IMG/VR virus record: IMGVR_UViG_3300045284_000174
Location: 1-49,475 of that record
Source of the DNA: a virus
Direction: 5' to 3' (one strand)
Length of the DNA stretch: 49,475 nt
The notes under the pieces are model-generated. The model saw only the letters and a list, made by a program, of their open reading frames with translations. It was not told the DNA's origin and did no database searches. Positions 1-49,475 of this stretch are shown piece after piece. A program made the translations under genes and the position numbers. Numbering within the stretch: position 1 is the stretch's first letter; the number at the start of each line of letters is the position of its first letter.

Positions 1-131
1 GAGAGCCCCGACGATCCCAGCCTCCGGGCAGCGGACCTGTTCCTGGCGTCGGTTCCGCCCGAGGTGCGGGCGCACATCGCTGATGTGCTGGCCCAGCACG
101 CTGGCAACGACCAGCTCAACCCCGAGCGCAT
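1..131. repeat. Terminal overlap with window end
   Basis: Bases 1-131 repeat bases 49345-49475. Bases 6-131 are identical; base 5 is G here and A at 49349, which changes a Ser codon to Asn. The same reading frame continues across the join, so this is the overlap of a circular or terminally redundant assembly, not a duplication. The length fits a large assembly k-mer better than a biological terminal repeat, but that is inference. Confidence 0.9.
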
Positions 132-4139: not shown

Positions 4140-5078
4140 ATGGCGAAGTCGAAGGCACGACCGAACAAGAACGCCGATGGCCAAGCGAAAAAGCCGTCCG
4201 CAAATCCTGATGGCGGCTCTGCGCCGTCGGCTGCCGCAGGTGCAGCGGCCGGTGCCGCTGCAGCGAACGCTGCAGTCGATCCCGCTGTTGCTGGTCGAGC
4301 CGCCGCCCCTTCGATGGTGCCCCCGGGCGGGCCGCCCGGCGCAGCTCCGCCGGCCCCTGCGCCCGTACCCGGTGCACCCACCGACGTTCCCGGCGCCGCA
4401 CCCGGGCCCACCACGCCCGGAGCACCCCTAGCTCAAGGTGTGCCTGGTGCAGCACCGCCCGCACCGGCCCAACCTGCCGGGCCGCAGGGCGCATTCGCCT
4501 CGCAGCCGCCCGGCTCGATGGGCGCCCGCAGCGACGCACGCTCGAACATCAACTTCAAGGACCTCCCGCCGCTTGGGCAAGCGCAGGCGATGGGTCAGGC
4601 CGGGCTCGACCCGATGGCCGGCAACAAGATGGCGCAGCAGCAGCTCAGCTCGACGCTCGCCGCCCCGCCGACCGACGCCAACGGTGCGCCCAACGCCTTC
4701 AGCGGTCCCGGCGTCCCGCCCGGCCTGGAGAACCTCCCGCACGACTTCGCCGCCCTGCACGGGATGGTCAAGCCGCTGACGGACACGATGGCCCGTGGCT
4801 TCTCACCGGGCTCGTCCAGCATGGAGCACCAGCAGGCGCTCAATGCTGCGGCGCTCGCACGGGCGCACGCCTCCGAGGCCGGCTCACGAGCGACGGCGCA
4901 GATCGAGCACCACCGGAACAAGACCAAGCTCGCCGAGCACCTGCACGCCATGCACCAGGCCGGCCAGCTCCCAACGCCCGAGATGATCGCTCAGCACGCC
5001 GCCGCTGCGCAACCGCAGGGCCCGCCGCAACTGCAGTCGATGCTCGGCGCACCGCCGGCACCGCAACCGGGGTACTAG
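4140..5078 (+). CDS. Ala/Pro-rich low-complexity virion-associated protein, 312 aa
   Basis: Residues 1-20 are basic, residues about 25-135 are almost entirely Ala, Pro and Gly, and the C-terminal half (about 140-312) is helical, with Gln-, His- and Ala-rich segments such as MEHQQALNAAALARAH. Low-complexity Pro/Ala linkers are common in virion and scaffold-like proteins, but no family is recognised. The gene is leaderless. Its last four bases overlap the convergent minus gene 5075-5302. Confidence 0.6.
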   Translation: MAKSKARPNKNADGQAKKPSANPDGGSAPSAAAGAAAGAAAANAAVDPAVAGRAAAPSMVPPGGPPGAAPPAPAPVPGAPTDVPGAAPGPTTPGAPLAQGVPGAAPPAPAQPAGPQGAFASQPPGSMGARSDARSNINFKDLPPLGQAQAMGQAGLDPMAGNKMAQQQLSSTLAAPPTDANGAPNAFSGPGVPPGLENLPHDFAALHGMVKPLTDTMARGFSPGSSSMEHQQALNAAALARAHASEAGSRATAQIEHHRNKTKLAEHLHAMHQAGQLPTPEMIAQHAAAAQPQGPPQLQSMLGAPPAPQPGY

Positions 5079-5302
5079 ACCTCGTCGGACCACTCGTTGC
5101 GGACGTCGCCCTCGCCGCCGCCGGCCTCGACGTCGTCGTCATTGTCGAGCACGACCTCAACCTGCGGGGCGAGCAGGTTGCGGATCGCTGCGGCCGCACC
5201 GTATAGCTCCTCCAGCGCCTGCTCCTCAGGGAGCGTACGGGAGAGCTGGGCAGCGGCGTTCCAGGTGCGGCGTGCCTTGAGGATGAGCTGCGCTTTGGTC
5301 AT
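5075..5302 (-). CDS. Small helical protein divergent from the metallopeptidase, 75 aa
   Basis: One of only two isolated minus-strand genes. The protein has a basic helical N-terminal half (MTKAQLILKARRTWNAAAQL) and an acidic tail (LDNDDDVEAGGGEGD...EWSDEV). A minus-strand leaderless promoter (TACGCT, seven bases, ATG 5302) supports it. Its -10 hexamer lies only ten bases from that of the divergent gene 5339, so the two are probably controlled together. Because ImmA/IrrE peptidases often act with a small partner protein, this could be a partner or inhibitor; that is inference from context only. Confidence 0.6.
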   Translation of the reverse strand: MTKAQLILKARRTWNAAAQLSRTLPEEQALEELYGAAAAIRNLLAPQVEVVLDNDDDVEAGGGEGDVRNEWSDEV

Positions 5303-5309
5303 GCCCGAG

Positions 5310-5331
5310 AGCGTAGTGATCCGAGTAAGCT
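5310..5331. promoter_or_regulatory. Back-to-back divergent leaderless promoters
   Basis: Minus strand: TACGCT at 5310-5315, seven bases before ATG 5302. Plus strand: TAAGCT at 5326-5331, seven bases before ATG 5339. The start codons of the two genes are only 36 bases apart, so RNA polymerase cannot easily bind both at once and expression may be mutually exclusive. Confidence 0.65.
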
Positions 5332-5338
5332 CTTGTCA

Positions 5339-5758
5339 ATGGCCGTCCGCTTCTCCCGCACCGCAGCGTACGTGCACATCAAGACGATCCTGGCGATCGA
5401 GGGGATCACGGTGCGCTGGCTCACGGGCCGCAACTGGCTGGCCAAAGCCCAGGCGTATGAGTCGGCGTGGACCGTGTCGATCCCGAAGCCGAACAGTCGC
5501 CGGCAGTACCTCGTCGGACTGCACGAGCTGGGGCACCTCCTCGGCGAGGTGCGCCCGAAGCACAAGCTCCCGATCTCGGTCGGCGTGAGCAACGTCATCG
5601 AGGAGACGTCGGCGTGGTACTGGGCGCTCTCGCACATCCCGCCCGAGCTAGACGCCTCGATCGAGGTGGGCACCGTGCAACTGCTGCTGGCCCAAACCCT
5701 GAACGTCCACATCTGGCACGCCGCACTGCTGGCCGGCGGGCAATCGGTCCCAGAGTGA
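5339..5758 (+). CDS. ImmA/IrrE-like zinc metallopeptidase, 139 aa
   Basis: The motif HELGH (residues 62-66, within GLHELGHLLGE) is the zinc-binding HExxH of gluzincin peptidases. A downstream EE pair (88-89) in VIEETSAWYWAL can supply the third ligand, the arrangement of ImmA/IrrE-type proteases. In known members these cut DNA-binding repressors or act as toxins of toxin-antitoxin pairs. A TTG six bases upstream is in frame, but ATG 5339 fits the leaderless promoter (seven-base gap). The gene sits among virion genes with its own divergent promoter, as expected of an accessory 'moron'. Confidence 0.7.
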   Translation: MAVRFSRTAAYVHIKTILAIEGITVRWLTGRNWLAKAQAYESAWTVSIPKPNSRRQYLVGLHELGHLLGEVRPKHKLPISVGVSNVIEETSAWYWALSHIPPELDASIEVGTVQLLLAQTLNVHIWHAALLAGGQSVPE

Positions 5759-21574: not shown

Positions 21575-24500
21575 GTGGCTGAGTACGTCCCGTACACGCC
21601 ACCGACACCGGGTGGAACGACCGCAACTGAGAATGCTCCGAGCATCTTCGGTTGGCATCCCTCCATGCCCAACCTCGGTGGCTTCAAGGCCCTAGGGCAA
21701 CTGGCGCAGGGCATCATTGCGCTGCCCGAGATCGCCTACTCGGCGCTGCCCGGCGGCCCGAAGTCGCAGCTCCCGCAGGTCGGCAAGGGACTCGTCGCTG
21801 GCCTCGGCGGAGTGGCCAGCACCCTCGCCTCACCGATCGGTATCCCCGGAAAGTGGAACCTCGGCGAGAACGTGATCGAGCCCGGCGTCGAAGCGCTCAC
21901 GGGCAAGGACAGCGTCAAAGACTTCTGGCAGATGTCGAAGGAGAACGGCCCGCTCTACGGAGCGATTAACACCGTGCTCAACGCACTGCCCGTCACCGGC
22001 CCCCTCGCAGGCGTAGCCGGCGCAGCCGCCGACGTCGCCGACACCGCAGCGCTCACCGCCGAAGCGTCGGCCGCCGCTGAGGGCGCCACCGCTGCCAGCG
22101 TCGGTGAGGCCGCCGCTGCCGACGCCCTCACCAAGACCGAGATGATCGGCAACAAGGGCCTGGGCGTGCACCCGTTCAAGGGCTTCGGCGCCGACAGCGG
22201 ACTCGCCTCCGTCAAGAACCTGGAGGTCACCGGCAGCGCCGAGGACTACGCCGCCAGCGTGCAGAAGATGGCCGACGCACTGCGCACCAAGGCCACGATC
22301 TACCACGCCATCGCCCACCCCGTTGGCGGGCTGTTCCACGGCATCTCCGAGCAGGCCGCTGCGTCGTTCGCCAAGCTCAACCCGTTCGAGACGACGTCGC
22401 CCGAGCCCGTGCCCGGCGCCGCCGACCTCATCCCGCAGGCCGACAAGGACGCTGCTATTGCTGCCACCAAGGCGACCGCCGCCCAGTCCGAGTTCGAGGC
22501 CGGCGGGCTCTACGAGGGCGACAGCGAACCGATGGAGTCGGCACTGCGTGCACTGCAGGCGCCCGAGAAGGCGGCCTCCGAGGTCATGTCCAAGACCGAG
22601 CACGCTGGCATCCGCACGCCTTCGACCTTCGATGAGACGACAGGAGAGGCAACGAACATCACCAAGGAAGAGAAGGCGGCCACAAGAGAAGAGATTGCCG
22701 GCCACGTCGAAGAGGCCAAGGCCAACATCGAGCAGCCCGGCACGGGTGAGGGCTCGAAGCTCGGCGAGATCGAGAAGCGGATCTCGCAGCCCGCAGCTGC
22801 GTGGGCTGTGCGTATGGCCGAGCGTCTGCCCGACAGCGTCAACCAGGTGCTGGCCCAGATGAAGGGCACCATCGACAAGTTCCACCTCAACCAGGCAGCA
22901 CGCTCCCTCGAACAGTGGGTGGAAGTGCAGCAGCGACAGGTGCAACATGGCGCCGCTGTCACTACGTCTGTCATGGCCGGCATGGCACTGAAGGACGCTG
23001 TGCGTGCAGCCGGCGGAAAAATCACTGACTTCCAAGCGTCCCAGGCCATCGGCGAAGAGCTGAACGCCATGATGCGAGGCAACAAGTGGGTGTCGGAGAT
23101 GCTCCGCACCGACGGCGACCCTGCGCTCGTGCAGGCCATGCGTGCTGCAGCACGCCGTGGCTACCCGGGGCTGGAGCCGTGGCTCAAGTACATGGACGAG
23201 CCGCAGCTCGCCGAGGTGATGCGCCACCTTCACGACGCCCAGGAAATCTGGACCACCGAGATGCAGAAGCGCATGCAGGTGCTGCTCGCCTCACGGCCCG
23301 GAGCGAAGGGCCTCGAAGCCGCCGTGCTCGGCCTCGACCAACCGCCGATGTCCGCATCGCAGCTCAAGGAATACCGCAAGGCCAAGCTGTTCCTGCGCAT
23401 GAAGGCGAAGCTCGAAGCACGCATCAGCGACGACCCCATCAAGGCCGACCCACGCTACCGTGACCTCAACCGCCTCGACCTCGCCACCGAGAAGGCCGCC
23501 AACGAAGCGCAGGCGTTGCGGGAACGCAGCGGCATCCTCCAGCGCAACATGGAGGACCTGCGCACGGCACCGCCGAAGGCGTCACTGCCCGAGCACGTCT
23601 CCCGCCTCGCCGCCGAGCTGCGTGACCAACTCGATGACCAGAACCCCGACGCAACCGGCGGCATCACGTTCGATCCCGGCAGCGCAAAGGTCGGCTTCAG
23701 CGACGGAGCCACGCAGGTGGTTGGCCTCGCCGAGCAGGCCACGTACGACGTCGACTTCCTGCGCAAGCCCGGCGAGGCAGAGAAGGCCATCCTCGAAGCG
23801 GTGACCAAACCCGTCAACGCAACCGGCGGTGCACTGCCCCCCGGCATCTGGGGCAACAACCTCAAGATCGGCTTCTGGAACGACAACGGCACGGTGTACG
23901 TCGACATCAGCGCCGACACGCACTACGACGGCACGCCGTTCACGCCGCTCGAAGCGGACCTGCTCGGCATGGCGCACGGCCAGCTCGCCGTGTTCGATGC
24001 ACGAGACTTCACCAGCCGTGCGCTCTCGCAGGCCAGCAGCGATCAGAACCTGTGGGCCCACTACATCGCCGACCTGATGGACCGCAAGAGCAACCTCTCC
24101 AAGTTCCTCGCCGAGCAGGCCAGCATCGAGCAGGGCAGCTCCATCCTCACCGAGGGCGACAGCACCCGAGCGCTCACCGTGTTCGCAACGTGGGACTACT
24201 CGCTCGCACGTAGCAACCCCGCCGAGCACGCCATCGGCGACATCTGGTCACGCCTCTCATACGACGAGTCAGGCCGCATCGTTCCCAACGACGAACAGCT
24301 CCTCCACCAGACCGTGCTGCGCATGCTCCCCGGCACCGAAGCGGACGCCATCGAGGGCATGGACGTCGACAACCTGCACAAGGCCCTCAAGTGGTACTAC
24401 GACTCGCACGAATACATCGAGGGCAAGTACCGGGGCAAGCAGATACAGCTCCTCAACGGCGAGTGGCGTGACGCCGCCGATGTCTTCTACGACCTCATCG

Positions 24501-27500
24501 CCGTCACGTCAGTGCAGGCATCGCCGACACAGAACTTCGGTCGTGCGCTCGTCGGACTCGCCAACTGGGACGACTTCCTCCAGGGCCGCTACACCGCCAT
24601 GAAGTCAGCGCAGGAGTTGATGGACCACCTCGAAGCCACGCCGCCCGGCACCGTCAACATTGTCGGCCCCTACTGGACGTACGGCGAGGGCGCCACCGTC
24701 AACCCGGCGACTGGCGAAGTTGAGCGCATCGCCGGCCCAGGCGACACGAAGTACACCAAGCTCAGCCGGCGCTTCATGTCGGACGAGGTACGCAACCTCA
24801 CCAGCGGCACCAACATGACCAACGACGCCAAGTACAAGGTCATGGACGTGATGCGTGGCGACCTCAAGCTGGAGTCCTCGAAGGCCGGCGACATCCAACA
24901 CAACGCCGAGTGGTGGTCGAGCAACAAGGGTGCCAGCGCCGAGTCGATGGACCGCCTGCAGGTCGTGAAGGAACTGGACCGAAACAACGTGCACACGCCG
25001 GCCAGCGAGGCGTACCGCCAGTGGGTAGTCGAGCGCAACCGGGTGAAGGTCATCGCCGACGAGATGAGCGCCGCCAACCGTGACCCACTCATGCGCCAGA
25101 CCCCCGGACAGACGTTCGCATCGCACCCAGAGTGGGTGCAGGAGTTCGGCACCAAGGCCGGCTTCGACCGCTACCGCAAGGGCGTGCTCGCCGACGAGGA
25201 AGCGTTCCTCACCGACGCCGAGATCAACGACGCACACGACCAGGCGCTCATGGAGCACCAGGGTTCGTCGCTGCTGGCCAAGCTGCGCTCCTTCCGAGAC
25301 AACCTCGCCAACCCGCACACGTCGCTCGCCGTCACGCTCGACTCGGTCATGGGACGGCTGTGGGGATTCAACTCGCAGCAGTGGGACAAGGTCGGGTTCT
25401 ACGCCAAGTACGCCGACAAGATCCGAGACATCGCCGCCGAGCTATCGAAGCGGTGGGGCTACGACGTCAAGCCGCACGAGGTACAGGCAGCGCTCTGGGT
25501 GCACGCCAAGCTGGAGATCGGACGCCAGGACTGGGGCCGGCTGCTGGCCCACCACGACGTGGCGATGAACCAGATCGACGCATGGGAGCAGGGCGCACCC
25601 ATCGAGCCCCGCATCGTGCAGGGACACCTCAAGCCAGTGCAACCCGAGGACCTGCTCGCCGACTACAAGAAAGAGGAGATCGGATACAGCGAGGCCGCAC
25701 AGGTCACCCGCTCCGACCGCAAGTACCTCCTCGACAAAAAGAACGCCGACCGCCTCTCGCCCGCACAGGAAGAGCAAGCGGCACAGATGCGCATCGACTT
25801 CGAGGACTACAAGGACCTCAACAACCAAGTCGCTCGTGGCGACATCACGCCGGCCGACACAAACCAGTGGGCCGAGTATGAGTCACTCCGACAGAAAGTT
25901 GGTGAGGGGCAGACCACTGACGTAACCACCGCACCGAACCGGGAGAACATCCGAGAGGGCGCCACCGAGCCGACACGGCAGGAGACACGCTACGAGATCG
26001 CCTACGACGCCAACAAGCTCAAGGCACAGAAGGTCCGCTTCGGCGGCTACGACGCCGTCGTCGCACAGCTCAAGGACGCACTCGACGCACGAGACTTCCA
26101 GAAGGCACGAGAGCTGGTCACGGCGTGGGTCATCTCGCAGCGTGACTCGGTGATGGGGCAGGGCGGCTCGTCGTTCGGTGTGACCGCCGAGGGCCAGCTC
26201 ATCAAGGACGAGCTGGCACGCCCCGGCGATCTCCGCAACGCCACTGCCGAGGGCACCGAGCGTCTGCAGAACGCCAAGACTATCCCGGCGCCGAACGACA
26301 TGAGCCGCAGCCGCTTCCGCATCGAGGCGCTGCACGAGCTGCTGAGGAATGGACAGATCAGCCAAGAGCAGTTCGACGTGCGGGCCGCCCAGTTCGAGCG
26401 CTCGCTCTCCAACGAAGAGCCCGGCCTCAACCAGCTCGGCCCCGCCGACACACCGCACCCCGACCCCGGCATGACCCGTGTGTACCGGGGCTCCGACTAC
26501 CCCGAGCCCGTCGGCATGCAGGGCATGTGGTGGACCGACCATCAGCCATACGGCCGTGGCGGTTACGAGCACTGGCAGCAGACCGACATGCCGTCCGACA
26601 CCGTCGAACGGCTCAAGGCGCAGGTGCTCTCCGACCGTGACCGCCTCGACCCCGCCGGCACACCCGTCGTCGGCCGGGACCTGATGCTCGACCCCAACGA
26701 GCCGGCGCACGCCTCGGCGATGGACCGGGCCGTCCGCTACATGCACGACGCCGTCAACCGTGGCGACGTGGACGCACTGCACCAGAGCTTCGAGCACGAG
26801 GTGCGAGGCGCACTGCTCGACCACCCCACGCCCGACGGCCACCTCGTCATGCGCATGTTCAAGAACGCCGCCTTCGACACGATCATGCACGAGGGCGCCC
26901 ACCTGCTGCGTCGCATCCTGCCGTCCGACATGCTCAAGGCACTCGAAGAGAAGTACCCGCACATCCTTGATGAGGACGTAGCGGCTGGCCTCGGTGAGAA
27001 CACCAAGGCCAACCCGCTGCGTGTCGCCGCCGAGGAGAAGTTCGTCGCCGACCTGATGGTCTGGATTCGCAACAAGACGCACGGTAACTGGGCGGCCGGT
27101 GGGCTCTCCGGTGAGCTACCCGAGCAGGCAGGCGCAGGCGCCGGCACACTCGTCGGCGAAGCGCTCGCCCGCACCGTGTCGATGGAGAACGTGTACGGCC
27201 AGATCGCCGCCGTGATCGAAGACAATGTGCTGCAGACCGTCGGCTCACCCGTCGGCCCGCAACAGCTCGACGTCAACGCATTCTGGACCCGGCTGTTCTT
27301 CCCCGAGATCGACAAGCCCGACGTCATCCACGACCCGATCTCCTCCGCCAGCTTGGAGCAGGGCCGAGAGCTGCGGAAGTTCCGCTACGAAACGGACACG
27401 CAGTACGCACGCCGAGTGCGCCAGTACGGCGAGGCACGCCAGGCGCTCAAGCAGACGCAGCTCCTCGCCGACAAAGCCGAGCGTCGAGCCGTGCAAGCGG

Positions 27501-29467
27501 AGACGGCCGCCAAGAAAATGCACGTCCTCATCACCAACACGCCGTCCGACCTACAGAAGCGGGCGACCGAGCTGGGCGTCAAGGCCGACAAGATCCTCGA
27601 CCGCCTCGCCCGACAACTGGAGAGCCCCGACCCGTCGAAGGTGCCGATGCAGTGGCGCTCGCTGTGGGAGGGCGTGGTCGACATGCAGGAGCAGGCGAAG
27701 GCCGACCCGACCGGCCGCCTCGCCGAGATCATGGCCGACGTTCCGCAGACGTTCCAAGACGTGCTGCGTGAGGCAGCGCAGCGTGGCTTCGACCCGCAGT
27801 TCCTCCCCGACATGACGTGGGAGATGGCGAACCGCTCACTGTTCGGCCACATCCGCATCGCTGCCGACACCGAGCTGCTCGACTCCACCCGCAAGGCGAA
27901 CCGTGGCGTGCTGCACAACAGCGGCATCGCCAACCAATCGATCGAGCAACTCGGCGCTGGCCTGATCGCCGCCACGAAAGAGCTGTACTCCAACACGCTC
28001 GTGACGCACATCGAGGACTACTACGCCAAGCCGCTCGCTCCCGGCGCTGCCATCCCCAAGGGCTGGGTCCCGTGGTCACCCGAGCGTGAGTACATCATGA
28101 CCGGCACCCGCCCCTCGGGCGAGATCGCTGCCACGGGCGGCAACATGATCGTGCCCGAGCACGTCGCCCGAGCGCTCGACTCGATGTCGAAGCGCTACGA
28201 CCACTGGACGTTCCACACCCTGACGAAGGCCAACAGCGTGTGGCGCACCTGGCAGCTCACGCTCTCACCCCGGTACTACATCCACATCTTCGTCGCCAAC
28301 ATGGTCCGGGCGATGATGGCCGGCGCTATGCCGAAGGACTTCCTTGAGACGATCAAGGGATGGAAGGCTGGCACACTTCCCGATGAACTGATTGGCCTCG
28401 ACCAGGTGTCGGCCTACCGTCAGCTCACGGGCGAGGACATGCCGAATCGGGCCATGCCCTCGGTGTTCGCCCAAGGACCCGACCGGCTGCTCGACCGCTC
28501 GCACTTCGCCGAGAACAATGCCGAGGCAGAGGGCAAGGTCGACAAGGTCAAGGCCGCCATCCACAGCGCCAAGCAATCACTGGAGAAGGCGCACGCCAAC
28601 ATTGACATGTTCGCCCGCTCTGTCGTGTTCGAGAGCAAGCTCCGCACGGGTGCCTCCCGGGAGGCCGCCCTCGCTGCGTCGCTCGAAGCGCTCGGCGACT
28701 ACGGCTCCCTGTCCCCATTCGAGCGGGCCGTCACCCGGGCCGTCATGCCGTTCTATCCGTACTACAAAGGGCTCGTGAAGCTGCTGATGCGGATGCCGGC
28801 CGACCACCCTGGCGCTGCCGTGGCGTTGATGCAGGCTGGCAAGATCCATCAGGAGTACATGGAGGACCTCCTCAACGGGCCCGTCCCCCAGTCGCTCGAC
28901 TCGACCTTCAACATCTTCGGCTTCCACCAGATGACGATCCTCGACCCGTTCATCAACGCCGTCCACGCCGTCGAGCCCCTGAACCTGGCCACCAGCCTGA
29001 GCCCCTTCGTGTCCCTGCTGATGCGCACGGCCTACAACGCCCCCACCAAGGGCACCTCGGTCCAGGGCCCCGGGCCCACCGGCAAGCGGCAAGCCAACTA
29101 CGACCCCCTGAGAGGCGCCCTACAGCTCGCTGAGGGGGCGCCGCCCGTTCTGGCAGCGCAGGGCGCTCTGGGCACAGACAACGCCTACAACCAGAATCCG
29201 GGGCTCCAGACGGCCATTGCGAAGTACGTCGGCGTACCCCAGCCGACGGCCGTGGCCGACGTCCAGGCCCAGCTCCACCCCACCCCCACCCAGCAGATCG
29301 AGCAGAAGGCCACGAAGAAGGCCGCCGCCGAGGCCAAGCGCAAGGCGAAGAAGCTCGCCGCCGGCCCCAGTCTGAAGCCGAAGAAGGCCCACGCCGGCAA
29401 CGCCAAGGGCCGCCGGATCGCTACGCACTTCACACGCAAGGCCGCTAGGCGGAAGAAGCCGTTCTGA
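21575..29467 (+). CDS. Giant polyvalent internal virion protein, 2630 aa, with HExxH peptidase motif
   Basis: By far the largest gene. Seen in order: a hydrophobic/Ala-rich N-terminus (residues 1-170); helical regions; a block near 900-1010 with ALKWYYDSHEYIEGKYRGK, then AVTSVQASPTQNFGRA, and near 1260-1315 WGFNSQQWDKVGFYAKY with VQAALWVHAKLE, which resemble DUF7178-type phage segments; RVYRGSDYPEPVGMQGMWW near 1635, similar to ADP-ribosyltransferase-like folds; a zinc-peptidase motif HEGAHLLRR (H1772-H1776); and near 2345-2400 YGSLSPFERAVTRAVMPFYP, like the LPD38 domain of large polyvalent proteins. The tail is Lys-rich. Such proteins are packed in the capsid and injected with the DNA. It starts at GTG, four bases after the upstream stop. 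Confidence 0.75.
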   Translation: MAEYVPYTPPTPGGTTATENAPSIFGWHPSMPNLGGFKALGQLAQGIIALPEIAYSALPGGPKSQLPQVGKGLVAGLGGVASTLASPIGIPGKWNLGENVIEPGVEALTGKDSVKDFWQMSKENGPLYGAINTVLNALPVTGPLAGVAGAAADVADTAALTAEASAAAEGATAASVGEAAAADALTKTEMIGNKGLGVHPFKGFGADSGLASVKNLEVTGSAEDYAASVQKMADALRTKATIYHAIAHPVGGLFHGISEQAAASFAKLNPFETTSPEPVPGAADLIPQADKDAAIAATKATAAQSEFEAGGLYEGDSEPMESALRALQAPEKAASEVMSKTEHAGIRTPSTFDETTGEATNITKEEKAATREEIAGHVEEAKANIEQPGTGEGSKLGEIEKRISQPAAAWAVRMAERLPDSVNQVLAQMKGTIDKFHLNQAARSLEQWVEVQQRQVQHGAAVTTSVMAGMALKDAVRAAGGKITDFQASQAIGEELNAMMRGNKWVSEMLRTDGDPALVQAMRAAARRGYPGLEPWLKYMDEPQLAEVMRHLHDAQEIWTTEMQKRMQVLLASRPGAKGLEAAVLGLDQPPMSASQLKEYRKAKLFLRMKAKLEARISDDPIKADPRYRDLNRLDLATEKAANEAQALRERSGILQRNMEDLRTAPPKASLPEHVSRLAAELRDQLDDQNPDATGGITFDPGSAKVGFSDGATQVVGLAEQATYDVDFLRKPGEAEKAILEAVTKPVNATGGALPPGIWGNNLKIGFWNDNGTVYVDISADTHYDGTPFTPLEADLLGMAHGQLAVFDARDFTSRALSQASSDQNLWAHYIADLMDRKSNLSKFLAEQASIEQGSSILTEGDSTRALTVFATWDYSLARSNPAEHAIGDIWSRLSYDESGRIVPNDEQLLHQTVLRMLPGTEADAIEGMDVDNLHKALKWYYDSHEYIEGKYRGKQIQLLNGEWRDAADVFYDLIAVTSVQASPTQNFGRALVGLANWDDFLQGRYTAMKSAQELMDHLEATPPGTVNIVGPYWTYGEGATVNPATGEVERIAGPGDTKYTKLSRRFMSDEVRNLTSGTNMTNDAKYKVMDVMRGDLKLESSKAGDIQHNAEWWSSNKGASAESMDRLQVVKELDRNNVHTPASEAYRQWVVERNRVKVIADEMSAANRDPLMRQTPGQTFASHPEWVQEFGTKAGFDRYRKGVLADEEAFLTDAEINDAHDQALMEHQGSSLLAKLRSFRDNLANPHTSLAVTLDSVMGRLWGFNSQQWDKVGFYAKYADKIRDIAAELSKRWGYDVKPHEVQAALWVHAKLEIGRQDWGRLLAHHDVAMNQIDAWEQGAPIEPRIVQGHLKPVQPEDLLADYKKEEIGYSEAAQVTRSDRKYLLDKKNADRLSPAQEEQAAQMRIDFEDYKDLNNQVARGDITPADTNQWAEYESLRQKVGEGQTTDVTTAPNRENIREGATEPTRQETRYEIAYDANKLKAQKVRFGGYDAVVAQLKDALDARDFQKARELVTAWVISQRDSVMGQGGSSFGVTAEGQLIKDELARPGDLRNATAEGTERLQNAKTIPAPNDMSRSRFRIEALHELLRNGQISQEQFDVRAAQFERSLSNEEPGLNQLGPADTPHPDPGMTRVYRGSDYPEPVGMQGMWWTDHQPYGRGGYEHWQQTDMPSDTVERLKAQVLSDRDRLDPAGTPVVGRDLMLDPNEPAHASAMDRAVRYMHDAVNRGDVDALHQSFEHEVRGALLDHPTPDGHLVMRMFKNAAFDTIMHEGAHLLRRILPSDMLKALEEKYPHILDEDVAAGLGENTKANPLRVAAEEKFVADLMVWIRNKTHGNWAAGGLSGELPEQAGAGAGTLVGEALARTVSMENVYGQIAAVIEDNVLQTVGSPVGPQQLDVNAFWTRLFFPEIDKPDVIHDPISSASLEQGRELRKFRYETDTQYARRVRQYGEARQALKQTQLLADKAERRAVQAETAAKKMHVLITNTPSDLQKRATELGVKADKILDRLARQLESPDPSKVPMQWRSLWEGVVDMQEQAKADPTGRLAEIMADVPQTFQDVLREAAQRGFDPQFLPDMTWEMANRSLFGHIRIAADTELLDSTRKANRGVLHNSGIANQSIEQLGAGLIAATKELYSNTLVTHIEDYYAKPLAPGAAIPKGWVPWSPEREYIMTGTRPSGEIAATGGNMIVPEHVARALDSMSKRYDHWTFHTLTKANSVWRTWQLTLSPRYYIHIFVANMVRAMMAGAMPKDFLETIKGWKAGTLPDELIGLDQVSAYRQLTGEDMPNRAMPSVFAQGPDRLLDRSHFAENNAEAEGKVDKVKAAIHSAKQSLEKAHANIDMFARSVVFESKLRTGASREAALAASLEALGDYGSLSPFERAVTRAVMPFYPYYKGLVKLLMRMPADHPGAAVALMQAGKIHQEYMEDLLNGPVPQSLDSTFNIFGFHQMTILDPFINAVHAVEPLNLATSLSPFVSLLMRTAYNAPTKGTSVQGPGPTGKRQANYDPLRGALQLAEGAPPVLAAQGALGTDNAYNQNPGLQTAIAKYVGVPQPTAVADVQAQLHPTPTQQIEQKATKKAAAEAKRKAKKLAAGPSLKPKKAHAGNAKGRRIATHFTRKAARRKKPF

Positions 29468-30416: not shown

Positions 30417-31859
30417 ATGCGAGCTTTGGATAGTTTTCAACACGACGTCCTGCGGTTCTTCACCGCAACCAATGGGCGTGCCATCTACGCCGACGACATG
30501 GGCGGCCGCAAGACGGCCACCACGCTGACTTGGCTGTCCGACAATCCCGACATCCACCGTGTGCTCGTGATTGTCCCGAAATCCGTACACGTCGACCACT
30601 GGCTCGCCGAGGCAGAGGTGTGGGCTCCTCGCCTCGCACGGCGCCGGGGCATGGGCCCGAAGCGGCTCGGCGTGTTGCACTCTAACGTCGAGGGCCCGTC
30701 TCTGTACGTCACCACGTACGCCTCTGCCCGCATAGACGAGATCGACCTGCGGATGCAGAAGTTCGACACCGTCGTCTTCGATGAGGGCCACGCCCTCAAG
30801 GGACGCACGACGCAAGTGGCGAAGATGGCGAACCAGCTCGCCAAGGCGCAGCGCTGCCTCATCGTCACCGGCACGCCCGTGATGAACGCACCCGAGGAGA
30901 TGTGGCAGTACCTCCACATGCTGCACCCCAAAGACTTCCGCTCGTACTGGCAGTGGGTCGAGGAACACTTCGTCATCTCGTTCGCCACCTTCAACCGGGA
31001 GCGCCCGTGGGAGCAGACCAAGGTGGTCGGCGGCTACCTCGAAGGGCACGAGAACATCGTACGTGCGCAGCTCTCGGGCGTCATCATCCAGCGAGAGATC
31101 AGTGAGCTGTTCCCTGGCGAGGTGTGGGTGGAGGAGCCGCACTTCACCACCTACCCCGTCGAGATGGCACCGGATGAGCGCAAGCTGTACGACCACCTCG
31201 TGGAGAAGGGCTGGGGCGTCGTGCCCAACGGCGTCATCCTCACCAAGAACGCCATCAGCGTGCAGACCAGGCTGCGGCAGCTCTCGTCCGACTGGTCCTC
31301 GCTGGACGAGGACCTCGGGCCCGGAGCCAAGGCCATCTTCGCCGCCGAGGACATCTACCGCTGGTTCGATAACGACGGCAAGCCCGTCATCGTGTTCACC
31401 GCCTTCCGTCGCACCGCCGAGGTCATGGCCAAGCTGCTCGCTGATGCTGGCCTGCGTGTTGCCAAGTACACGGGCGAGGAGTCCGGGCTCGCACGCAGCC
31501 TCACGCTCACCGAGTACAACAAGGGCCGGCTCGACATCATCGTCGGCACGATCGCTGCGATGGGCGAAGGCCTCGACGGCCTGCAGTACCGCACCCACAA
31601 GATGGCCTTCATGGACCTCGACTGGGTGCCAGGCATCAACGACCAGTGCATCGGCCGGTTGAAGCGTAGCGGCCAGAAGCTGCGAGTCGAGGTGCGCATC
31701 TACTTCTACAAGGACAGCCTGGAGCAGGCCGTCGTCGCCGCCAACCGCCGCAAGCAATCGCTCGTGGCGTTCCTGCGTGGCAAAGACGTCGGGAAGGTGG
31801 TGTACGGCCATGTCGATGAAACCGCAGGAGACATCGAGCTTGTCGAAGGCTGGGTATAA
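30417..31859 (+). CDS. SNF2-family DEAD/DEAH helicase
   Basis: A 480-residue two-domain superfamily 2 helicase/translocase. Motifs: DDMGGRKTATT (Walker A, near 26-36; most relatives have GLGKT), DEGH (122-125), TGTP (151-154), and IGRLKRSGQ (motif VI, near 405). An ATP-driven role in replication or recombination is expected. Leaderless, with the strongest promoter in the window; it is the first gene of the replication block. The next gene, an HNH nuclease, begins inside its 3' end. Confidence 0.88.
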   Translation: MRALDSFQHDVLRFFTATNGRAIYADDMGGRKTATTLTWLSDNPDIHRVLVIVPKSVHVDHWLAEAEVWAPRLARRRGMGPKRLGVLHSNVEGPSLYVTTYASARIDEIDLRMQKFDTVVFDEGHALKGRTTQVAKMANQLAKAQRCLIVTGTPVMNAPEEMWQYLHMLHPKDFRSYWQWVEEHFVISFATFNRERPWEQTKVVGGYLEGHENIVRAQLSGVIIQREISELFPGEVWVEEPHFTTYPVEMAPDERKLYDHLVEKGWGVVPNGVILTKNAISVQTRLRQLSSDWSSLDEDLGPGAKAIFAAEDIYRWFDNDGKPVIVFTAFRRTAEVMAKLLADAGLRVAKYTGEESGLARSLTLTEYNKGRLDIIVGTIAAMGEGLDGLQYRTHKMAFMDLDWVPGINDQCIGRLKRSGQKLRVEVRIYFYKDSLEQAVVAANRRKQSLVAFLRGKDVGKVVYGHVDETAGDIELVEGWV

Positions 31860-32172: not shown

Positions 32173-33154
32173 AGTCATCAACTGGTCGGAGTTTTCGACG
32201 CTGGCAAACTGCGAGACGCAGTGGGGCTACGCCTACCTGCTCGGCGCCGTCGAGCCGGGCGACAAGCTCCCGCTCCACAAGGGCACGCTGCTCCACCTCG
32301 GACTGGATCGCTGGACCCTCGGGCTCGGCGCTACGCTTCCAGAGGTATGGACCGACGACATAAATACGGGTGGCAAGCCGGGCGAGGTGCGCACGCTGCA
32401 TCTCTCGGACTTCGATCCGCAGCTCGTGGAGGACGTGCGCTGGTTGCTGGCTCGCTACGAGCTGGTGTACGGCTCGCAGCCTCCTTCGTCTTGGAACGTC
32501 ATCTCGACCGAGGAGTGGCTTACCGGCACGATCAAGGTCGGCGCCCGTAAGGTCCGCATCGTAGGCCGGCACGACGGGCTGATCGAGATCCCCGAGCTGG
32601 ACCAGCTCTGGCTCATCGAGCGCAAGAGTTACGGCCAGCGTGGCCGGCTCGACACCGTGCAGGCCGAGCTGCAGTCGGTGATATACGACTACCTCATCCA
32701 GACGAAGTACAAGCGCAAGCTCACTGGCATCCTGTACGACGGCATATACACGCACCGCTTCGTGCCGAAGGTGCCAACGCAGAAGTTCCTCATCGAGGCC
32801 GAGCTGGCACGCCGACCTAACAACGGCTTCGAGCTGCTGTCCAAGGCACGCCAGACCGAGTGGGCACGAGAGCAGGTCGCACTGCACCCCGGCGTCGAGC
32901 GTGACGCAGCCGACTCGTTCGAGCGGCAGTGGATCGACCACACACAGCAGCAGATCGACATGTCGCACGTCGTGCTCGGGGCCACCATCAAGCGGCGTGG
33001 CGTGCTCAAGACCCTGGACGACACCATCCCCCACGTCGGCCGGCAGTGCTCGTGGTGCGGCTTTAAGGACCGCTGCTGGGCCCGCCTCACCGGAGTGAAC
33101 CAGGACATCGAGCTGGTCGGTGGCTATTTCGATGAAGGGGATGAGCCGGTATGA
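32156..33154 (+). CDS. RecB/Cas4-like PD-(D/E)XK exonuclease with Fe-S cysteines
   Basis: A 332-residue nuclease. Start GTG 32156 lies inside the HNH end; the frame is open upstream but the protein pattern begins here (VTKRIEVINWSEF). The active site is GRHDGL (D140) and LIERKSYG (E155, K157), followed by QAELQSVIYDYL (Q169). One Cys near the N-terminus (C19) and three at the C-terminus (CSWCGFKDRC) match the four-Cys 4Fe-4S site of Cas4/AddB nucleases. It would process DNA ends in recombination. It overlaps the WhiB gene by ATGA. Confidence 0.82.
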   Translation: MTKRIEVINWSEFSTLANCETQWGYAYLLGAVEPGDKLPLHKGTLLHLGLDRWTLGLGATLPEVWTDDINTGGKPGEVRTLHLSDFDPQLVEDVRWLLARYELVYGSQPPSSWNVISTEEWLTGTIKVGARKVRIVGRHDGLIEIPELDQLWLIERKSYGQRGRLDTVQAELQSVIYDYLIQTKYKRKLTGILYDGIYTHRFVPKVPTQKFLIEAELARRPNNGFELLSKARQTEWAREQVALHPGVERDAADSFERQWIDHTQQQIDMSHVVLGATIKRRGVLKTLDDTIPHVGRQCSWCGFKDRCWARLTGVNQDIELVGGYFDEGDEPV

Positions 33155-33822
33155 GTCAGTTCGACTTAAGCGATCTCCCCGCCGACAGGCCGGCGGCCTC
33201 GTTCGTGGTGCGCAAGCTGCCGTGGATGGCCGACGCCCAGTGCAAGGCCAGCGACGCCAAGCTGTTCTTCGACCAGGTCGAGGACACGCACGCCACGATC
33301 CGAGAGCCGGCGATCGAGCGAGCGCAGGACATCTGCGCCGTGTGCCCCGTGCGCAAAGAGTGCGGCGCCTACGTGATGGAGACGGAGGGCGGCGCCGACG
33401 AGGCGATGCGCTTCGGGTTCTGGGCATACATGACTCCGCAGCAGCGAGTGAGCATCCACCGCCGGGGCGGCCTGCTCGGGCGTGACCCGATGCACATGGT
33501 AAAGGGGCGGGACGGCGAGCGCCAGGTCATGCCCGTGCCGATCGAGGGCGACCGCTGGTCCCGGCACCACACGACGCTGGCCCGTCGTGTCGTCACACTG
33601 ATTCAGGACACGCTCGTGGACGGCGAGGCGCTGCCGTCCACCGATGCGCTCGCAGAGCTGCTGGAGTGCCACCCGAGCCCGCTGCGCCGAGTGCTCGATG
33701 CGCTCGTGCAGGACGGCACGCTCGACATGGTTGGCACGCAGCGTCGGCGCATGTACACTGTCCGAGGCGCAGCGAGAGCAACCCCGTCAACGTGGCTCCC
33801 GCTCCACCTGCGCTCAACCTAA
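33151..33822 (+). CDS. WhiB-like [Fe-S] protein fused to a winged helix
   Basis: Residues 1-105 are WhiB-like: four Cys (C31, C62, C65, C71) with the spacing C-x30-C-x2-C-x5-C, and FGFWAYMT in place of the usual G-[IV]-W-G-G turn. WhiB proteins bind a 4Fe-4S cluster and contact the host sigma factor; they are restricted to actinobacteria and their phages. Residues about 145-205 look like a winged-helix domain (ALAELLECHPSPLRRVLDAL, then RRRMYTV). The WhiB-plus-winged-helix fusion is unusual. It is coupled to the upstream nuclease by ATGA. Confidence 0.8.
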   Translation: MSQFDLSDLPADRPAASFVVRKLPWMADAQCKASDAKLFFDQVEDTHATIREPAIERAQDICAVCPVRKECGAYVMETEGGADEAMRFGFWAYMTPQQRVSIHRRGGLLGRDPMHMVKGRDGERQVMPVPIEGDRWSRHHTTLARRVVTLIQDTLVDGEALPSTDALAELLECHPSPLRRVLDALVQDGTLDMVGTQRRRMYTVRGAARATPSTWLPLHLRST

Positions 33823-45210: not shown

Positions 45211-45239
45211 TTTGGTTGGCGTGCCTGATTGCACGCAGC

Positions 45240-45313
45240 GTCCCGAGCAGGAGTCGAACCTGCTGTCTGCCGGCGGAAAGGAAAACGCTCAGCAGCATTG
45301 AGCCAACCGGGAC
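45240..45313 (-). tRNA. Degenerate tRNA-like element (acceptor and T-arm intact)
   Basis: Seven acceptor pairs (5' GTCCCGG with 3' TCGGGAC, one G-T wobble), a perfect T-arm GCAGG-TTCGACT-CCTGC with the conserved TTCGA, and a four-pair D-stem GCTC/GAGC. But the D-loop lacks GG, the 17 bases at the anticodon position do not pair, and no register gives T33 with a purine at 37, so no anticodon can be read. CCA is not encoded. It lies inside a minus-strand transcript between two protein genes. Likely a decayed tRNA or a tRNA-shaped RNA signal. Confidence 0.5.
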
Positions 45314-48537: not shown

Positions 48538-49475
48538 ATGCGAACATCCGTTCGCCCAAGTCCACAGGAGATTCCCGTGCCTAAACCGTGCGCAGTGTGC
48601 TCCCATCCCAGCAGGTCCGAGATCGACCGGCAGCTGTCCCAGCAGGCGATCAACGTCTCCGCCCTCGCACGGCACTACGGCCTCAAGCGGGACTCGGTGA
48701 TGAACCACCGCTCCAAGCACCTGCCTGACTTTCTGCCGGCGTTCGAGGCCACGGCGTCGGCACCTGCCGGCGGCGAGGTGAACGCTGAGACGCAGCGGCT
48801 GTATGCGCTGGCACTGGATGCGCTGGCCACGGCGCAGGCCGGCGTGCTAGTTCAAGTCGGCAAGACTGATGCCAAGACGGGCGAGCGGCACTTCGAGCGC
48901 ATCGTCTCGCCCACCTCGATCGTCAAGGCCATTGGGGAGGCGAGAAAGATATTGGGGATGATCTCCGCCCTCGCCGCTGCGCCCCGTAAAGAACAAGCTA
49001 CTGCTGATTCAATGGGCACCGCACTGGAGTCGGCGATGTCTCGTGCGCTAGCCCGCTTCGAGGAGCGGGTAGGGGGCCAGCAGCCAGCGCTGGGTATGAG
49101 TCACGACGACGCATACGTGGACGCTGAGGTAATAGTCACGCCGACTCATACCTCGGGTGAATCGGTATCAGTCGGTCAGACCCAAAGGGGCGAACAGGTG
49201 TTCGGGTTTGAGTCAGTTCGACTTGACTCCGGGCATGCGGAGCCCACCACGCCGGGGCCGGGTGCGGGCAGCGGCCCCCCGCTGGTATCTGCATCTGCAG
49301 GGGCCCCAAATCCTGACGGCCCTCCAAAAATCCCCGTGGACGCCGAGAACCCCGACGATCCCAGCCTCCGGGCAGCGGACCTGTTCCTGGCGTCGGTTCC
49401 GCCCGAGGTGCGGGCGCACATCGCTGATGTGCTGGCCCAGCACGCTGGCAACGACCAGCTCAACCCCGAGCGCAT
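48538..49475 (+). CDS. HTH DNA-binding protein, candidate small terminase (5' part of junction gene)
   Basis: From ATG 48538 the frame runs to the window end and continues at base 1-357 (about 387 residues joined). An alternative GTG start at 48577 has an AGGAG ribosome site. Near the start is KPCAVCSHPSRSEIDRQL, a CxxC-containing segment, followed by a helix-turn-helix-like stretch (INVSALARHYGLKRDSVMNH). This combination is frequent in phage DNA-recognition proteins; it could be the missing small terminase or a transcription regulator. Residues about 75-160 are helical; the rest is Gly/Pro-rich and disordered. Confidence 0.7.
   Translation, partial: MRTSVRPSPQEIPVPKPCAVCSHPSRSEIDRQLSQQAINVSALARHYGLKRDSVMNHRSKHLPDFLPAFEATASAPAGGEVNAETQRLYALALDALATAQAGVLVQVGKTDAKTGERHFERIVSPTSIVKAIGEARKILGMISALAAAPRKEQATADSMGTALESAMSRALARFEERVGGQQPALGMSHDDAYVDAEVIVTPTHTSGESVSVGQTQRGEQVFGFESVRLDSGHAEPTTPGPGAGSGPPLVSASAGAPNPDGPPKIPVDAENPDDPSLRAADLFLASVPPEVRAHIADVLAQHAGNDQLNPER

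What the first reader, a model, noticed from the sequence alone, without database searches (positions are those of the whole stretch)
5075..5758. Divergent cassette: IrrE-like metallopeptidase and small partner with back-to-back leaderless promoters
A HELGH metallopeptidase and a 75-aa protein are divergently transcribed from overlapping control DNA (start codons 36 bp apart) in the middle of the structural region. ImmA/IrrE peptidases act on DNA-binding repressors or as toxins, so this may be a phage-encoded regulatory or anti-defence pair. The shared promoter region would make their expression mutually exclusive. The small partner has no recognised family.
Basis: partly seen in the sequence, partly recalled or inferred. 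Interest (0 to 1): 0.7.

Follow-up and report, generated by a model that had tools for sequence, protein, structure and literature searches.

The report
Divergent phage metallopeptidase and acidic partner
A phage that probably infects actinobacteria carries, among its virion genes, a small zinc peptidase and a short acidic protein read in opposite directions from one shared 36-base promoter; the pair is real and conserved in a close relative, but it is an optional accessory whose target is unknown.

Summary
At 5075-5302 (-) and 5339-5758 (+) there are two coding genes with 36 bp between their start codons. A close relative (L002) keeps both proteins (52% and 44% identity), the same 36-bp gap and all promoter hexamers. 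The peptidase carries HELGH and an invariant downstream Glu (HEXXH...E). Its predicted fold is a minimal zincin whose nearest, weak matches are IrrE-like phage proteins and minigluzincins. No family profile recognises it confidently, so "IrrE-like" describes the fold and is not shown membership. The partner is a predicted helical hairpin with an acidic tail, not a helix-turn-helix repressor.

"Leaderless" is well supported: TANNNT-N6/7-start is a genome-wide signature of this phage's structural-half genes. The partner has the genome's best promoter (TTGACA-N18-TACGCT-N7-ATG). The peptidase has only a -10, like the other structural-half genes. I therefore read this as an early/late divergent pair. 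Mutual exclusion is plausible but not shown.

The obligate-pair idea is weakened. L007 has a distant peptidase beside the same structural gene but divergent from an endolysin, with no partner. L008 has neither gene. The locus is accessory. Its target, and any link between the two proteins, are unknown.

The parts
5075..5302 (-). Small partner protein, 75 aa, pI about 4.25: predicted helical hairpin (residues 3-21 and 26-47) plus a low-confidence acidic tail
   Evidence: ORF and codon usage; 52% identical protein in L002; AlphaFold model; charge and pI
5339..5758 (+). Minimal zincin metallopeptidase, 139 aa, HELGH (62-66) and Glu89; predicted order helix, three strands, HEXXH helix, Glu helix, C-terminal helix
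   Evidence: conserved in L002, L007 and L010; model pLDDT 78; fold matches
5334..5339 (-). -35 box TTGACA of the partner promoter; its first base (minus strand) is the complement of the A of the peptidase ATG
   Evidence: identical in L002
5310..5315 (-). -10 TACGCT of the partner, N18 from the -35 and N7 from the ATG (leaderless geometry)
   Evidence: TAAGGT in L002
5326..5331 (+). -10 TAAGCT of the peptidase, N7 before the ATG; no -35 box (best 3 of 6)
   Evidence: TAGGGT in L002
5303..5338 (.). 36-bp shared intergenic promoter DNA
   Evidence: 36 bp in both window and L002
5776..6132 (+). Next gene downstream: small protein of unknown function in the structural block, with its own TAGCTT-N6-ATG; its homologue directly follows the peptidase in L002 and L007 too
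4140..5078 (+). Upstream gene, convergent with the partner (stop codons overlap by 4 bp); its homologue in L008 is followed directly by the 5776 homologue, with no cassette between

Best explanation
This is an accessory ('moron'-like) locus between two structural-block genes. Shown: two real genes, a peptidase with an intact HEXXH...E motif and an IrrE/polyvalent-MPTase-like predicted fold, a small acidic partner predicted to be helical, and a shared 36-bp control region conserved in one relative. Inferred mechanism: the partner is made early or basally by host sigma-A RNA polymerase from a consensus-like promoter. That polymerase covers the peptidase start, so the peptidase is favoured only when the late, -10-only leaderless promoters of the structural block switch on. 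The peptidase then cleaves a specific host or virion protein late in infection. The partner's acidic hairpin most likely binds a protein, either the peptidase or a host factor, and does not bind DNA.
For: Coding and conservation. Active site His62, Glu63, His66 and Glu89 invariant in four sequences; fold. Leaderless class: TANNNT-N6/7-ATG occurs 21 times against 6.05 (sd 2.6) in shuffles, with a sharp spike at spacing 6-7; it precedes structural-half genes, while right-half genes mostly show Shine-Dalgarno-like motifs. The same pattern occurs in L008 and L002, and in published work TANNNT about 12 bp before the start marks leaderless genes, especially in Actinobacteria (PMC3160421). Partner promoter distinct: of 17 such promoters only the partner (TTGACA 6/6) and the SNF2 helicase gene (TTGACT 5/6) have a -35; in L002 the partner alone has 6/6. 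Accessory status: no match to either protein in the whole L008 record. Only minus-strand gene predicted among the plus genes from 0.06 to 44.9 kb.
Against: No expression data; early and late classes are inferred from sequence only. No evidence that the two proteins interact. No substrate identified. No HTH repressor next to the peptidase. The peptidase protein diverges fast (window/L002 dN about 0.60, dS about 0.65, both rough), so purifying selection is visible mainly at the active-site and core residues. The pair is seen in only two phages. L008 shows no TTGAC-N17-20-TANNNT site at all, so the -35 rule for early genes cannot be general in the group.
Confidence: 0.4

Rival explanations
1. Virion-maturation or polyvalent-type protease: the peptidase processes a phage structural or injected protein (for example the 2630-aa giant protein or a fibre), and the divergent partner is unrelated.
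For: It lies in the structural block and shares the structural genes' promoter type. The peptidase-5776 adjacency persists in L002 and L007 while the divergent partner changes. In L010 the same domain is part of a 718-aa protein. MPTase domains are proposed to process large phage proteins (PMC5512222). The giant protein has a partial homologue in L008.
Against: L008 has the giant-protein homologue but no peptidase homologue, so this peptidase cannot be generally required for it. No cleavage site or substrate is known.
Confidence: 0.25
2. Anti-repressor switch of ImmA/MpaR type: the peptidase cleaves a host, prophage or phage repressor, and the partner is its regulator.
For: Fold similarity to IrrE-like phage proteins. 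MpaR and ImmA are metalloprotease anti-repressors that act on CI-like repressors, in a module with opposed promoters (PMC6872733).
Against: No profile match to M78. No XRE/CI repressor gene beside it; the partner is not predicted to be a helix-turn-helix protein. No integrase turned up among the genes scanned, so a lysogenic switch is unsupported. Late-class promoter.
Confidence: 0.15
3. Toxin-antitoxin-like pair: the peptidase is toxic and the acidic partner inhibits it.
For: The partner is small and acidic, has the strongest promoter and would be made first. A zinc metalloproteinase/HTH-Xre pair in Brucella has been proposed as a TA system (PMC10538038, abstract).
Against: Divergent rather than one operon; no DNA-binding domain predicted in the partner; L007 keeps a peptidase homologue without the partner.
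Confidence: 0.12

Closest known systems
ImmA/IrrE (Peptidase M78, DUF955) metallopeptidases, e.g. ImmA, IrrE/PprI, MpaR
   Same: HEXXH helix plus downstream Glu, minimal zincin fold; nearest predicted-structure match is an 'IrrE N-terminal-like domain' phage protein (E 1.4e-3, TMq 0.57)
   Different: No M78 profile match; no adjacent XRE/CI repressor; no accessory DNA-binding domain
Zincin-like MPTase domains of polyvalent proteins (including ArdC C-terminal domain)
   Same: N-terminal helix, three strands, HEXXH helix, Glu helix, as described in PMC5512222; in relative L010 the domain sits in a 718-aa protein
   Different: Stand-alone 139-aa protein here; no ArdC-N domain; no PolyVal profile match
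Minigluzincins (abylysin, jannalysin, selecase)
   Same: Small single-domain zincins; best solved-structure matches (E 0.04-0.23)
   Different: TM-score only about 0.3-0.4 and 12-17% identity; phage gene with a different C-terminal part
Bacterial bidirectional or overlapping divergent promoters (Warman, Grainger and colleagues)
   Same: Two promoters whose polymerase sites cannot be filled at once
   Different: Separate -10 elements 10 bp apart with starts 37 bp apart, not one shared -10 with the common 10/18/23-bp spacing (PMC12825309); leaderless; one side has a -35 and the other does not

Membership tests
ImmA/IrrE (Peptidase M78) | HEXXH plus downstream Glu zinc ligand | tested here: met
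   H62, E63, H66 and E89 invariant in 4 sequences; metal binding itself not tested
ImmA/IrrE (Peptidase M78) | Match to the family profile | tested here: not met
   No M78 hit in Pfam or NCBIfam up to E 1; PHROG metallo-protease phrog_87 only at 0.0062-0.31
ImmA/IrrE (Peptidase M78) | Same fold | tested here: inconclusive
   IrrE-like phage proteins E 1.4e-3 to 0.03, TMq 0.4-0.57; Deinococcus PprI only E 1.3
ImmA/IrrE (Peptidase M78) | Cognate HTH repressor substrate next door | tested here: not met
   Partner predicted as a helical hairpin, no family match; other neighbours are structural-block genes
Polyvalent-protein MPTase / ArdC | Helix, three strands, HEXXH helix, Glu helix core | tested here: met
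   Secondary structure of the model against the published description
Polyvalent-protein MPTase / ArdC | Part of a multidomain protein (ArdC-N or other domains) | tested here: not met
   139-aa stand-alone protein; only L010 shows a 718-aa protein
Metzincin (M10 matrixin; weak profile hit) | HEXXHxxGxxH third histidine | tested here: not met
   Position is Arg in the window and Gly in L002; profile hits below threshold
Type II toxin-antitoxin | Two genes co-transcribed in one operon | tested here: not met
   Divergent genes
Type II toxin-antitoxin | Toxicity neutralised by the partner | not testable with these tools
   Needs co-expression
Phage moron | Extra genes between genes that are adjacent in relatives | tested here: met
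   Absent in L008, where the 4140 and 5776 homologues are adjacent
Phage moron | Own promoter and terminator | tested here: inconclusive
   Promoters. Terminator-like hairpins without a T-run only in L002; none found in the window

The most novel reading that the evidence does not exclude
The 36-bp region is a compact early/late switch. The partner side reads through a -35 box and the peptidase side through a -10 only, so a phage factor that changes sigma region 4 (-35) recognition, such as the WhiB-domain protein at 33151-33822, would flip transcription from partner to peptidase and turn on the leaderless -10-only structural genes in the same step.
Probability: 0.12. Interest if true: 0.75.

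Novelty: new variant of a known kind. Interest (0 to 1): 0.42.

Why it matters
If the reading is right, the locus shows how a phage of probable actinobacterial host can time a protease with 36 bp of DNA and no leader RNA. It also points to a testable rule for this phage group: structural genes carry -10-only leaderless promoters. The peptidase would be one more phage zincin outside the catalogued IrrE/ImmA families, with an unknown target.

Tried and rejected
Annotated phage records and a plasmid collection (tblastn) gave no homologue for the peptidases searched from the window, L002 (phages and plasmids) or L007, nor for the L002 partner in phages; the L010 domain had one marginal phage hit. 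Two genome-contig scans (peptidase alignment, partner alignment) found none. Viral scans with each protein, with alignments, and with the portal and the 5776 protein added only L010 beyond the relatives found by terminase. Matrix metalloprotease matches rejected: they cover only the HELGH stretch and the third His is missing. Other reading frames at the locus rejected by codon usage. The simple sigma-70 scan found nothing because its rule demands 4 of 6 in the -10, which TANNNT sites need not reach. A complex model was not possible with the tools. The fold search for the partner gave no significant match.

Full report
What is there. The window is a 49,475-bp virus record; its two ends repeat the same roughly 130 bp almost exactly, so it is probably near complete. 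Portal (P22-like), terminase and major head protein are recognisable. The finding's two ORFs are where stated. The partner is 5075-5302 (-), 75 aa. The peptidase is 5339-5758 (+), 139 aa from ATG (a TTG at 5333 is an alternative). Between the start codons lie 36 bp. Codon usage trained on the phage's large genes scores both as coding and three competing frames as non-coding; the partner is the only minus-strand gene predicted between about 0.06 and 44.9 kb.

Conservation. The nearest relative, L002 (terminase 91% identical), has the same layout: peptidase 44% and partner 52% identical, 36 bp between starts. Twenty-three of the 36 intergenic bases are identical and the promoter hexamer positions are all kept. 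The proteins diverge much faster than the terminase, as do the neighbouring fibre and decoration genes. L008 (terminase 63%, 49 kb record) has neither gene anywhere in the record, and its 4140 and 5776 homologues are adjacent. L007 (terminase about 53%) has a 27% identical peptidase directly upstream of a 5776-like gene. There the divergent neighbour is an endolysin-like gene (Rv2525c-type domain), whose likely GTG start at L007:664 lies 33 bp from the peptidase GTG. No partner is found in that 7.6-kb fragment. So the locus is accessory, and the peptidase is tied more closely to its downstream neighbour than to the small partner, although this rests on one distant homologue in a fragment.

The peptidase. 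HELGH (62-66) and Glu89 are invariant in four sequences, along with Trp93 and Trp95 after the third ligand. The AlphaFold model (mean pLDDT 78, four-sequence alignment) gives helix, three strands, HEXXH helix, Glu helix, C-terminal helix. The best predicted-structure match is a phage protein named IrrE-like (E 1.4e-3, TMq 0.57). The best solved structures are minigluzincins (E 0.04, TMq about 0.4), then ArdC and the M. tuberculosis regulator 6d2s. None reaches E 0.001. Pfam and NCBIfam give no M78 or polyvalent-MPTase match. I therefore call it a minimal zincin that resembles IrrE and polyvalent MPTase domains, not a member of either. The metzincin third histidine is absent. In L010 the same domain lies in the C-terminal half of a 718-aa protein.

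The partner. It is strongly acidic (pI 4.25; 4.28 in L002). The conserved core is KAR[RK]TWNAAAQxSRxL. The model is a helical hairpin with an acidic, low-confidence tail, without significant fold matches. It does not look like a helix-turn-helix DNA-binding protein.

The promoters. TANNNT placed 6-7 bases before an ATG occurs 21 times in the window against 6.05 (sd 2.6, maximum 14 of 100) in dinucleotide shuffles, and neighbouring spacings show no such excess. These sites precede the starts of genes of the structural half (for example 3307, 4140, 5339, 5776, 7104, 9290, 12664, 17270, 20006, 20363, 29749, 30118). Genes of the right half mostly show Shine-Dalgarno-like motifs instead. L008 (15 genes) and L002 (8 genes) show the same. 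TANNNT about 12 bp before the start is the published sign of leaderless genes, especially in Actinobacteria (PMC3160421). Of 17 such promoters in the window only two have a -35: the partner (TTGACA, N18) and the SNF2-helicase gene at 30417 (TTGACT, N17). In L002 the partner promoter again is the only one with TTGACA. A TTGACA-N16-19-TANNNT followed by a start codon is expected 0.01 times by chance, and the back-to-back geometry 0.02 times. The partner's -35 lies on the peptidase's start codon and the two -10s are 10 bp apart, so two polymerases could hardly sit there at once.

How it most likely works (inference). Host polymerase with sigma-A can use the partner promoter from the start of infection. 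The peptidase promoter is of the -10-only type shared with the structural genes and would follow their timing. Competition would then favour partner early and peptidase late. In E. coli, promoters sharing a -10 compete only when one direction is strongly activated (PMC12825309), so mutual exclusion is possible but must be measured. L008 has no TTGAC-type promoter, so early expression in this group need not depend on that box. The phage's WhiB-domain protein (33151-33822) has a homologue in L008. Wbl proteins contact sigma-A region 4, which reads the -35 (PMC6282962), so it is a candidate, and only a candidate, for the switch. The Wbl family is described there as confined to Actinobacteria, which together with the leaderless signature and the weak Arthrobacter/Streptomyces phage terminase matches suggests an actinobacterial host.

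What the peptidase cuts is unknown. A late host target or a virion protein is favoured by its position and promoter class. An ImmA/MpaR-type anti-repressor is less likely because no repressor gene is near and no integrase turned up among the genes scanned. A toxin-antitoxin pair is weakened by the divergent layout and by L007.

Verdict.

Noticed in passing
window, 2.7-30.4 kb; also the L008 and L002 records: Genome-wide class of leaderless, -10-only promoters (TANNNT-N6/7-ATG) before structural-half genes, while right-half genes mostly show Shine-Dalgarno-like motifs; seen in three related phages.
   Followed up: partly
33151-33822 (+): WhiB-domain protein with a weak GntR-like winged-helix match in its C-terminal half; homologue in L008. 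Candidate regulator of the early-to-late switch.
   Followed up: partly
21575-29467 (+): 2630-aa protein without a confident known domain, with partial homology in L008; possible internal virion protein.
   Followed up: no
45238-45313 (-): ARAGORN reports a tRNA-like gene with a four-base anticodon (tccg), identity unassigned; could be a false positive or an unusual tRNA.
   Followed up: no
L002:4883-4940: 13-bp perfect hairpin followed by a second hairpin between the convergent ends of the 4140 homologue and the partner (z about -3.9); no T-run, and nothing similar in the window, where the two stop codons overlap.
   Followed up: partly
L007:664 (-): Endolysin-like gene with its own TAGGGT-N7-GTG, divergent from the peptidase homologue over 33 bp: same layout with a different partner.
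   Followed up: partly
L010:4582-6738: 718-aa protein with the same metallopeptidase domain in its C-terminal half and a weak nucleotidyltransferase match (E 0.23) in its N-terminal half.
   Followed up: no
window 1-130 and about 49346-49475: Terminal repeat of roughly 130 bp, almost exact by eye (one mismatch near its start), suggesting a near-complete genome.
   Followed up: partly
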